In this document: positions 36,497 through 43,883 of the stretch, in pieces | Position numbering within the stretch: the stretch's first letter is position 1 | How the letters are laid out: each line of letters starts with the position of its first letter | Assembly: GCA_946498975.1 (NCBI GenBank) | Contig: CAMMQC010000005.1 | Coordinates: 1-53,597 of the forward strand | Origin: an uncultured Mycoplasmatota bacterium | Lineage (GTDB): Bacteria > Bacillota_I > Bacilli_A > RF39 > UBA660 | Direction: 5' to 3' | Length of the DNA stretch: 53,597 nt | Translations under genes and position numbers: made by a program | Notes under the pieces: generated by a model | Told to the model about the DNA's origin: nothing | Databases searched by the model: none | What the model saw: the letters and a program-made list of their open reading frames with translations, nothing else

Positions 36497-36996
<500 letters not shown>

Positions 36997-37095
36997 AGCA
37001 ATTCTCCTTTCCAATATAGTTTATTCTTAATAAGAAAATAAGTTATTATTATAGTCTAGTAAATGATATAATTGTAACAAAGGGAGGAAATTATT

Positions 37096-41639: not shown

Positions 41640-42362
41640 ATGAAAGCAAGCGTTGACTCAATTGAAACCTTTGGCCTTGTTGATGGACCAGGAATTAGAA
41701 CCGTAGTATTTTTAGATGGTTGTACTCTAAGATGTAAATACTGTCATAACCCAGAAACTTGGGCAATGAATGAAGTAAACTATGATACTGATGAATTAGT
41801 TAAAAAAATTCTTCGTAACAAACCATACTTTAAAAGAAATAATGGTGGTGTAACTTTCTCTGGAGGAGAACCTCTTTTACAAATTAATTTCTTATTAGAT
41901 ATCTGTAAGAAACTAAAAAAAGAAGGTATCCACATTGCCTTAGATACTGCAGGTGTTGGTACCTGCAAATATAAAGAAATATTAGAGTTAATAGATCTTG
42001 TTATTTTAGATATTAAACACGTTACCAAAGAAGGTTATAAAGACTTAACAGGAAGAGATATAGAAGAGTCAGAAAAATTTATCGAAGAGTTAAATAAGAG
42101 TGGTAAACCAGTTTGGATTAGACAAGTAATAGTTCCAGGTATTATGGATAATGATGAATATTTAGATGGTTTAGTAGAATATTTAAAGAAAATAAAAAAT
42201 ATTGAAAAAATAGAATTTCTACCATTTCATCACTTAGGTTTTGAAAAATATCAAAAACTTAATATTCCTAATCCATTAAAAGATACACCTGAGATGGATG
42301 CTAGTAAATGTGATGAACTATATAAAAAGTTTATGAAGAAATATGAGAAGTCTAGGAAATAG
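41640..42362 (+). CDS. pflA: Pyruvate formate-lyase activating enzyme
   Basis: A 240-residue radical SAM enzyme that installs the glycyl radical on PflB. The cluster motif CTLRCKYCHNPETW (CxxxCxxC, about residues 29-36) and FSGGEPLLQ near 75 are visible. The ATG begins immediately after the pflB stop, so translation is coupled. The last codons and stop lie inside a 29-bp sequence that is repeated perfectly 1.5 kb downstream, on the other side of an ATPase gene. Confidence 0.97.
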   Translation: MKASVDSIETFGLVDGPGIRTVVFLDGCTLRCKYCHNPETWAMNEVNYDTDELVKKILRNKPYFKRNNGGVTFSGGEPLLQINFLLDICKKLKKEGIHIALDTAGVGTCKYKEILELIDLVILDIKHVTKEGYKDLTGRDIEESEKFIEELNKSGKPVWIRQVIVPGIMDNDEYLDGLVEYLKKIKNIEKIEFLPFHHLGFEKYQKLNIPNPLKDTPEMDASKCDELYKKFMKKYEKSRK

Positions 42363-42371
42363 GCTTCTTTT
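42343..42371 (+). repeat. 29-bp direct repeat, left copy (also the pflA terminator)
   Basis: Starts ATGAGAAGTCTAGGAAATAG and ends GGCTTCTTTT. It matches 43855-43883 base for base. It includes the pflA stop codon TAG and a hairpin (AGAAGTC / GGCTTCT with a T tail), so the pflA terminator is duplicated around the ATPase cassette. Confidence 0.95.
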
Positions 42372-42389
42372 TACTTAAAATAGACTAAA

Positions 42390-42475
42390 AATCTTGATTT
42401 GGTGTAAAATCTAGTTTTAAAAAATCTTGATTTCGTGTAAAAATAAAGTTGAAAAAAACTTGATTTCGTGTATAA
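42390..42475 (+). repeat. Three-copy 20-bp repeat, exact 33-bp period (array C)
   Basis: CTTGATTTsGTGTAAAA-like units begin at 42390, 42423 and 42456, an exact 33-bp period. The third unit merges with the -10 box (GTGTATAAT). The repeats lie on about the same DNA face (about three helical turns apart), like operators or iterons bound cooperatively by a protein. Confidence 0.88.
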
Positions 42476-42476
42476 T
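42449..42476 (+). promoter_or_regulatory. Promoter of the ATPase gene, overlapping array C
   Basis: TTGAAA (42449-42454), a 16-base spacer and TATAAT (42471-42476). The third repeat covers the spacer and -10 box, so anything bound there should affect transcription. Confidence 0.8.
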
Positions 42477-42496
42477 GTAATTATGGAGGTATCTTT

Positions 42497-43849
42497 ATGC
42501 AAAGAAAAATTTATAATAAGTTAGTTCAATGGAAAGAAGATTCTAATGGAAAAACAGCTCTTCTTATAGATGGAGCAAGACGTGTTGGAAAAAGTTACAT
42601 AGTAGAAGAGTTTGCTAAAAACAATTATAAAAATTATATTATGATAGACTTTAATAGAGCACCACTTGAAATTAAAAATTTATTTGATTTATATTTGGAT
42701 GACTTAGATAATTTATTTTTATATTTATCTAATTACTATAATGTAAAATTATATGAAAGAGAAAGTTTAATTATTTTTGATGAAGTACAACTATATCCAA
42801 GAGCAAGGTCTGCAATTAAATACTTAGTCGCTGATGGTAGGTATGATTATATTGAAACAGGATCTCTAGTTTCAATAAATGAAAATGTTAAAGATATTTT
42901 AATTCCTTCAGAAGAACAACATTTAAAAATGTATCCTATGGACTTTGAAGAGTTTTTATGGGCTTTAGATAATCACGGCTTAATGGAATTAATAGAAAAA
43001 AGTTTTAATGAAAGGAAACCTCTCGGTAATATTTTTCATAGAAAAGCAATGGATTATTTTAGACAATATATGATAGTTGGTGGAATGCCACAAGCAGTTT
43101 TAGAGTATGTTAATACTAAAGATTTTAATAAAGTAGATCAGATAAAAAGAAATATTTTAGACTTATATCGTGAAGATATAATTAAACATTCTGGCAAGTA
43201 TAGTTTAAAAGTAAGAAGTATATTTGATGAAATACCATCACAACTTCAAAAGCATGAAAAAAAGTTTAGAATCACATCTTTAGATAAGGATGCTAAAACA
43301 AGAGATTATGAGGATGCTTTTATGTGGTTAGATGATGCCATGATTGTTAATCAAGCATTTAATACTACAGAACCAAGTATAGGACTTTCTCTAAATTTAG
43401 ATAATAGTTTTTATAAATGCTATATGTCAGATACTGGACTTTTAATTTCAAAGGCTTTTGATGAAAAAAGCATTGTAGAAGAAGAAATTTATAAAAAGAT
43501 ATTATTTGATAAATTAGAATATAATGGTGGAATGATACTAGAAAATATAGTCGGTCAGATGTTAGTTTCTAATGGACACAAACTATATTTTTATTCCAAT
43601 AGTTCTAGAGAAAATAGTAATGATAGGATGGAAATTGATTTCTTAATTTCAAAATCAAAAATTACTAATAAACATAATATTTCCCCAATTGAAGTTAAAT
43701 CTGGTAAAAACTATACTTTAGTTTCATTAAATAAATTTAGAAAAAAGTATGCAAATTATCTAGCCACACCTTATATAATTCATACAAGTGATTATAAAGA
43801 AGAAGATGACATTGTATATTTACCAGTTTATATGACAATATTATTATAA
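42497..43849 (+). CDS. AAA_14 / DUF4143-type ATPase
   Basis: A 450-residue P-loop ATPase. Walker A GARRVGKS (26-33), Walker B LIIFDEVQLYPRAR (91-104), an arginine-rich NTPase core, then YIETGSLVSINENV and the winged-helix/DUF4143 part. The C-terminus has the PD-(D/E)XK-like signature EIDFLISKSK (about 377) followed by ISPIEVKSGKNY (about 394). Family function is unknown; members occur in many copies in some genomes. ATGGAGGTATCTTT precedes the ATG. It forms a single-gene unit with its own array and promoter, inserted between pflA and the next gene. Confidence 0.92.
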   Translation: MQRKIYNKLVQWKEDSNGKTALLIDGARRVGKSYIVEEFAKNNYKNYIMIDFNRAPLEIKNLFDLYLDDLDNLFLYLSNYYNVKLYERESLIIFDEVQLYPRARSAIKYLVADGRYDYIETGSLVSINENVKDILIPSEEQHLKMYPMDFEEFLWALDNHGLMELIEKSFNERKPLGNIFHRKAMDYFRQYMIVGGMPQAVLEYVNTKDFNKVDQIKRNILDLYREDIIKHSGKYSLKVRSIFDEIPSQLQKHEKKFRITSLDKDAKTRDYEDAFMWLDDAMIVNQAFNTTEPSIGLSLNLDNSFYKCYMSDTGLLISKAFDEKSIVEEEIYKKILFDKLEYNGGMILENIVGQMLVSNGHKLYFYSNSSRENSNDRMEIDFLISKSKITNKHNISPIEVKSGKNYTLVSLNKFRKKYANYLATPYIIHTSDYKEEDDIVYLPVYMTILL

Positions 43850-43854
43850 AAAGG

Positions 43855-43883
43855 ATGAGAAGTCTAGGAAATAGGCTTCTTTT
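43855..43883 (+). repeat. 29-bp direct repeat, right copy
   Basis: Identical over 29 bases to 42343-42371. It follows the ATPase stop codon by 5 bases and supplies a terminator hairpin for it. Confidence 0.95.

What the first reader, a model, noticed from the sequence alone, without database searches (positions are those of the whole stretch)
42390..42475. Three 20-bp repeats at an exact 33-bp period over the ATPase promoter
Copies start at 42390, 42423 and 42456. The third overlaps the -10 box. An exact period near three helical turns implies cooperative protein binding on one face. Because the element has only one gene, the ATPase itself or a sibling could bind there, making the array the recognition end of the element.
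Basis: seen in the sequence. Interest (0 to 1): 0.7.

Follow-up and report, generated by a model that had tools for sequence, protein, structure and literature searches.

The report
Private repeat array of mobile ATPase gene
The three repeats in front of this ATPase gene are real and are one case of a general rule: nearly every member of a very common family of candidate defence genes (PDC-S01) carries its own sequence-specific repeat array, and array plus gene move between genomes as one small unit, which suggests that the protein recognises its own array.

Summary
In detail: three 20-bp units at an exact 33-bp period cover the promoter of an AAA_14-DUF4143 ATPase gene. It is not peculiar to this locus. 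In 141 of 165 non-redundant homologues (Firmicutes, Bacteroidota, Proteobacteria, spirochaetes, an archaeon, viral contigs) I find 2-7 units upstream of the gene; of 316 spacings, 227 are 33 bp and 311 are 32-34 bp. Adjacent copies agree over a 17-bp core while spacers are near random. Units differ between homologues, and between paralogues of one genome. The unit occurs essentially only upstream and in one orientation. DNA homology between close relatives at different sites runs from the array to the stop codon and stops there. A sister genome has the empty site, and the element here is flanked by a 29-bp duplication of it. The protein is AAA+ plus a predicted winged helix plus a PD-(D/E)XK nuclease fold, and matches PADLOC PDC-S01, a widespread candidate defence gene without tested function. 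Best reading: the array is the private recognition site of its own protein, acting as promoter operator and as the left end of a one-gene mobile unit. Binding and mobilisation are inferred, not shown.

The parts
42343..42371 (+). left copy of the 29-bp flanking duplication ATGAGAAGTCTAGGAAATAGGCTTCTTTT (3' end and stop codon of pflA plus terminator)
   Evidence: identical to 43855-43883; single copy in the empty site of sister genome G008
42345..42369 (+). intrinsic terminator of pflA inside the duplicated segment
42372..43854 (+). inserted element (1483 bp): short leader, array, promoter, ATPase gene, 5 bp after the stop codon
   Evidence: absent from the empty site in G008 (L120)
42390..42409 (+). 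array unit 1 AATCTTGATTTGGTGTAAAA
42423..42442 (+). array unit 2 AATCTTGATTTCGTGTAAAA
42456..42475 (+). array unit 3 AAACTTGATTTCGTGTATAA, overlapping the -10
42449..42476 (+). promoter TTGAAA-16-TATAAT
   Evidence: consensus match only
42485..42489 (+). ribosome binding site GGAGG
   Evidence: read from sequence
42497..43849 (+). AAA_14-DUF4143 ATPase gene (450 aa), PADLOC PDC-S01
42554..42958 (+). AAA+ ATPase domain, residues 20-154 (Walker A G26..GK32, Walker B D95 E96 invariant or nearly so)
43163..43462 (+). predicted winged-helix region, residues about 223-322
   Evidence: inferred from the model and its match to archaeal AAA+ ATPases 2qen and 2fna
43463..43846 (+). PD-(D/E)XK-type nuclease fold, residues 323-450 (D381, E399, K401 invariant or nearly so)
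43855..43883 (+). right copy of the 29-bp flanking duplication

Best explanation
The array is the cognate DNA-recognition site of the protein encoded by the gene behind it. Shown by comparison: each AAA_14-DUF4143 gene has its own unit sequence, repeated 2-7 times at about 33 bp; the array lies on one side only and in one orientation; array and gene form the unit that changes place. Inferred: the AAA+ protein binds the units through its winged helix, as an oligomer with one subunit or dimer per unit; this covers the promoter or start of the gene and represses it until a trigger (phage, entry into a new cell, loss of protein) frees it; the same bound array marks the left end of the one-gene element, so each copy acts on its own DNA and not on that of its paralogues. 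The PD-(D/E)XK domain is the effector, and possibly the nuclease that opens the target with widely staggered nicks and so leaves long duplications of varying length.
For: Family-wide array with period 32-34 found by lag scans that do not know the motif (20-60 bp; 16-80 bp) and by unit extraction. Private units: similarity is near the shuffled level below about 50% protein identity and rises with identity, and paralogues of one genome differ. Adjacent copies are 72-98% identical over the 17-bp core and about 25-41% in most spacer columns, so units are maintained and spacers are not. The unit occurs upstream on the coding strand 332 times, upstream on the other strand twice, elsewhere in the loci 12 times. 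Homology of close relatives ends at the array and at the stop codon in 39 of 49 pairs; two copies in one genome with unrelated flanks. Exact empty site with 29-bp duplication; flank duplications in 15 of 159 loci versus 0 of 949 permuted pairs. AAA+ part close to archaeal AAA+ and Orc/Cdc6 proteins bound to DNA; nuclease fold. In the window all units lie at or upstream of the promoter, so they are not in the RNA.
Against: No binding data. Covariation did not single out the winged helix: unit similarity tracks the whole protein (partial correlations AAA 0.16, nuclease 0.11, winged helix 0.03), and a candidate residue (229) failed on new sequences. No strand-transferase domain is visible, so self-mobilisation is unexplained. 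Only a minority of loci keep flank duplications, and some of those counted are array units. Most data are metagenome assemblies.
Confidence: 0.65

Rival explanations
1. The array is only an autoregulatory operator; the gene is carried about by other means (natural transformation, other elements, illegitimate recombination) and the array has no part in movement.
For: The array lies over or beside the promoter or start codon in the cases read; in the window the promoter sits at the last unit, in other homologues (such as L023) a promoter-like site sits at the first unit, with further units in the leader. No transposase domain.
Against: Homology boundaries coincide with the array start and the stop codon in 39 of 49 pairs, more precise than ordinary illegitimate recombination would give; but an operator would also have to travel with its gene, so this is only weakly against.
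Confidence: 0.45
2. Self-mobilising element: the AAA+-winged helix-nuclease protein uses its own array as the transposition end and cuts the target with staggered nicks, giving long duplications of variable length.
For: Element boundaries, one-sided array, empty site, target duplications of about 14-60 bp whose right copy usually begins 0-50 nt after the stop codon; nuclease fold; up to 42 copies in one genome.
Against: No recognisable strand-transfer domain; no defined right end; duplication length not fixed; no movement observed.
Confidence: 0.25
3. Binding site of a host transcription factor.
For: Arrays lie at promoters.
Against: Paralogues in one genome have unrelated units; the unit is not found elsewhere in the genome above the control; related units follow the gene across phyla and into an archaeon.
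Confidence: 0.03
4. Iteron- or centromere-like site (replication or partition) of a former plasmid.
For: Direct repeats at near-integral helical pitch, bound by an Orc/Cdc6-like AAA+ winged-helix protein, would resemble initiator-iteron or parC pairs; fold similarity to Orc1/Cdc6.
Against: Chromosomal one-gene insertion; no replicon or second partition gene beside it; members of the family also sit inside large plasmids typed with their own replicons.
Confidence: 0.05
5. RNA-level element (leader structure or repeat RNA).
For: In some Bacteroidales the units lie downstream of a promoter-like site and reach the start codon (L054-L056).
Against: In the window all three units lie at or upstream of the -10 and are not transcribed from this promoter.
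Confidence: 0.02
6. Chance or a recent tandem duplication without function.
For: Low-complexity AT-rich sequence.
Against: Spacers have diverged to near randomness while units stay alike; period conserved in 141 loci; background regions 18 of 366 positive with scattered lags.
Confidence: 0.01

Closest known systems
PDC-S01 (PADLOC phage-defence candidate; AAA_14-DUF4143, COG1373-type ATPase)
   Same: The gene is a member by HMM (E 1.5e-117); ATPase fused to PD-(D/E)XK as described for PDC-S01 in PMC12988326.
   Different: The papers found treat it as a stand-alone defence candidate; the private array and the one-gene unit of movement are not mentioned in what I could search.
Archaeal AAA+ ATPases of the SSO1545 / PABY2304 type (PF01637, ATPase_2)
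   Same: Best structural match over residues 1-321 (Z 16.2 with rmsd 3.9 over 262 residues, and 14.9 with rmsd 4.7 over 272); single genes with large paralogous expansions; private repeats in front of many genes.
   Different: Their repeats are mostly inverted, some as two copies about 51-54 bp apart, not direct 33-bp arrays.
Iteron-initiator and parC-type arrays with autoregulation
   Same: Direct repeats over the promoter of the gene whose product is thought to bind them.
   Different: No replicon, no partner gene, period 33 and not 11 or 21-22, private to each paralogue (comparison from general knowledge).
Insertion sequences
   Same: One gene, scattered sites, target duplications, empty site.
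   Different: No known transposase, no terminal inverted repeats, array at one end only, duplications of variable length.
AAA+ transposition regulators (TnsC, MuB, IstB, TniB) with TnsA
   Same: AAA+ protein coupled to a PD-(D/E)XK nuclease and repeated end sites in Tn7 (general knowledge); one member of the alignment has a weak TniB match.
   Different: No DDE transposase here.

Membership tests
AAA_14-DUF4143 ATPase | Both Pfam domains above gathering score | tested here: met
   AAA_14 85.8 bits (cut-off 27), DUF4143 75.6 bits (cut-off 28.1); 75 of 75 alignment members match both
PDC-S01 | PADLOC HMM match over the full length | tested here: met
   391 bits, residues 1-448
PDC-S01 | Antiphage activity | not testable with these tools
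   candidate only; [quoted passage not shown]
PD-(D/E)XK nuclease | Fold and catalytic D-ExK residues | tested here: met
   D381, E399, K401 invariant or nearly so; most of the best matches of the C-terminal model are PD-(D/E)XK nucleases (McrC Z 8.5, Can2 8.1, VRR-NUC 7.7, FokI 6.8), although no Foldseek E-value is below 0.001
Winged-helix DNA-binding protein | Winged helix C-terminal to AAA+ | tested here: inconclusive
   model aligns to 2qen/2fna through residue 321; the region was not searched as a separate domain
Insertion sequence / transposon | Recognisable transposase or recombinase | tested here: not met
   only AAA_14 and DUF4143 domains found
Insertion sequence / transposon | Terminal inverted repeats | tested here: not met
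   units upstream only and in one orientation
Insertion sequence / transposon | Target-site duplication with matching empty site | tested here: met
   29 bp and G008 empty site; other loci about 14-60 bp, so length is not fixed
Iteron-controlled replicon | Array lies in an autonomous replicon next to its initiator gene | tested here: not met
   insertion behind the chromosomal pflA gene with an empty site in G008
Autoregulatory operator | Encoded protein binds the array and represses its promoter | not testable with these tools
   overlap with the promoter seen; binding not tested

The most novel reading that the evidence does not exclude
AAA_14-DUF4143 (PDC-S01) genes are a class of self-mobilising one-gene elements in bacteria and archaea: an AAA+-winged helix-PD-(D/E)XK protein that recognises its own private 33-bp-period array as the only end signal and inserts without a known transposase, so that what is counted as one of the commonest defence systems of prokaryotes is at least partly a selfish mobile element.
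Probability: 0.25. Interest if true: 0.95.

Novelty: new variant of a known kind. Interest (0 to 1): 0.8.

Why it matters
PDC-S01 is reported as the fourth most common defence system across prokaryotes (29,494 in Bacteria and 9,986 in Archaea in one survey, PMC12988326) and its mechanism is untested. A private, sequence-specific array in front of almost every copy gives a direct handle: it predicts the DNA each protein should bind, allows swap experiments between paralogues, and asks whether these genes defend the cell, spread themselves, or both. The natural collection of protein-unit pairs is also a ready set for learning a protein-DNA recognition code.

Tried and rejected
Covariation between unit positions and protein columns: strong-looking pairs (residues 289, 300, 270, 229) rest on few sequences; the best rule (K/R at 229 with G in GGTG) was contradicted by new sequences (L271 with V and GGTG, L279 with K and another unit). 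Correlation of unit similarity with single domains: none stands out. A second array at the right end: not found as a rule; L080 and L236 have units just after the gene. Host regulator: rejected because paralogues differ. RNA leader: rejected for the window. CRISPR-like array: not pursued, as spacers of about 13 bp do not fit. No paper was found that describes the arrays; the library holds open-access papers only, no preprints. Viral-contig and phage-record copies exist but are few. The structural search of the full model mostly sees the AAA+ part.

Full report
Observation. The three 20-bp units are present at 42390, 42423 and 42456 with an exact spacing of 33 bp. The core has no other match with up to one mismatch in the 1.5-Mb genome. 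The third unit lies between TTGAAA (42449-42454) and the end of TATAAT (42471-42476) and overlaps the latter. The gene behind it (42497-43849) encodes a 450-residue protein with AAA_14 and DUF4143 domains and matches the PADLOC family PDC-S01 from end to end.

The array is a property of the gene family. Homologues were fetched from the genome collection, from the genus, family and class, from viral contigs and from nine further genomes that include multi-copy genomes of Bacteroidales, a spirochaete, Oxalobacter, Desulfovibrio and a Methanomethylophilaceae archaeon. A lag scan that does not know the motif found significant direct repeats in 75 of 102 upstream regions, 73 of them with a lag of 32-34 bp; nearby background regions gave 18 of 366 with scattered lags. 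With lags of 16-80 bp allowed, the result is the same in close homologues, viral contigs and distant paralogues. Unit extraction, which allowed spacings of 31-35 only, gave arrays in 141 of 165 non-redundant loci, 2 to 7 units each (3 commonest), with spacings 31:3, 32:54, 33:227, 34:30, 35:2. L004, a DUF4143 gene of this genome whose relatives recur as a single close match in most genomes of the genus, shows no array. Plasmid copies in Acinetobacter, Phocaeicola, Glaesserella and Segatella show repeated units by eye.

Units are specific and private. In the close family the unit is a core of about 17 bp, AAATCTTGATTTCGTG-like, ending in a nearly invariant GTG followed by an A-rich stretch. Adjacent copies in one array are 72-98% identical over the core but about 25-41% in most spacer columns, so spacers drifted while units were kept. 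Between homologues the middle changes: column 8 is T in 50% and A in 48% of copies, yet adjacent copies agree in 90%. Unit similarity rises with protein identity and is near the shuffled level below about 50% identity. Paralogues in the same genome have different units: one Bacteroidales genome has 42 DUF4143 genes, and those read have arrays such as AACCTCCGAAAATCTGCA, TTTCAGGGTTGGATTTTAT and AACATTTTGCGATTTTCGAC. This argues against a host regulator and for a recogniser that travels with the gene; as the moving unit holds one gene, that is the ATPase itself.

The array is one end of what moves. The unit occurs upstream on the coding strand 332 times, upstream on the other strand twice, and elsewhere in the loci 12 times. 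In pairs of homologues with at least 85% protein identity and flanks available, DNA homology begins 60-235 nt before the start codon, at the array, and ends within 25 nt of the stop codon in 39 of 49 pairs; 9 pairs share a longer flank on at least one side. Two copies in one Bacteroidales genome are 91% identical over 1,426 bp from the array to the stop codon, with unrelated flanks apart from one 46-bp match further downstream. The sister genome G008 has the empty site of the window element: its sequence runs through pflA, one copy of ATGAGAAGTCTAGGAAATAGGCTTCTTTT and the window's right flank. The window has that 29-bp segment on both sides, so the insert is 42372-43854. Across loci, flank duplications of score 14 or more occur in 15 of 159 against 0 of 949 permuted pairs; three of the 15 (L080, L236, L022) look like array units and two (window and L090) are one insertion site. 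Lengths range from about 14 to 60 bp and the right copy usually begins 0-50 nt after the stop codon. Other relatives keep remnants: two units without the gene in G005, one or two units with a broken gene in G021 and G031. The upstream neighbour lies on the same strand in 66 of 85 cases.

The protein. An AlphaFold model (mean pLDDT 89.5) matches archaeal AAA+ ATPases 2qen and 2fna over residues 1-321 (Z 16.2, rmsd 3.9 over 262 residues, and Z 14.9, rmsd 4.7 over 272) and, more weakly, Orc/Cdc6 and NLR or STAND proteins. From general knowledge the archaeal proteins carry a winged helix after the AAA+ module; that residues 223-322 are such a domain is inferred. The C-terminal 131 residues modelled alone (pLDDT 87.3) match mostly PD-(D/E)XK nucleases: McrC, Can2, VRR-NUC, FokI, BamHI, with modest scores (no Foldseek E-value below 0.001). 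D381, E399 and K401 are invariant or nearly so.

Mechanism. Shown: private arrays, one-sided, at the promoter or start, co-inherited with the gene and bounding the moving unit. Inferred: the protein binds its own array; binding represses the promoter (the window promoter is embedded in unit 3; in other homologues a promoter-like site lies at the first unit or upstream of it); and the array marks the left end for movement. The last step is the least certain because no strand-transfer domain is seen. I could not tell which domain reads the unit: covariation was inconclusive.

Wider pattern. A more distant branch of AAA_14-DUF4143 genes has units, several palindromic, at 22-23 or 39-41 bp, and the sister family PF01637 has private inverted repeats beyond the shuffled maximum before 11 of 17 genes tested. 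So private upstream repeats may be a general property of this class of single-gene AAA+ ATPases.

Known and new. PDC-S01 is listed as a very common defence candidate without tested function (PMC12988326, PMC13356809). I found no paper that describes the arrays or the one-gene unit of movement; preprints and most subscription papers were out of reach.

Limits. Most sequences are metagenome assemblies; homologues are not independent; unit extraction allowed only spacings of 31-35, although the independent lag scan agrees; only one empty site was aligned base by base.

Noticed in passing
L078, L081, L082, L083, L084 (ATPase gene): Five AT-rich clostridial homologues carry a +1 shift in the ATPase gene, in each case at a CGG codon that is the only one, or one of two, among about 1,500-3,000 codons of the locus. 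CGG may be unassigned there and passed by a +1 shift or read as a four-base word.
   Followed up: partly
L026, neighbouring 290-codon ORF: A neighbouring ORF has the only CGG of its locus at codon 287, just before its end, as if another gene shifted at CGG.
   Followed up: no
G122 loci among L282-L305: The sister family PF01637 (31 matches in one genome) has private inverted repeats, some as two copies 51-54 bp apart, in front of many genes.
   Followed up: partly
L218, L231, L223, L226, L241, L248, L187: A distant DUF4143 branch has units, several of them palindromic, at 22-23 or 39-41 bp instead of 33 bp.
   Followed up: partly
L123, L134, L135: Relatives at the same pflA site keep one or two array units without an intact gene, like solo remnants.
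   Followed up: yes
L080 and L236, just behind the gene: A second pair of units follows the gene within about 20-115 nt, giving array-gene-array.
   Followed up: partly
window 36538-37014, strand -: ORF with collagen-like Gly-Pro-Thr repeats, antisense to a repeat ORF at 36512-36940.
   Followed up: no
L260 (Glaesserella plasmid): The ATPase gene is flanked by two similar copies of about 85 bp, a possible longer target duplication, next to a type III restriction system.
   Followed up: no
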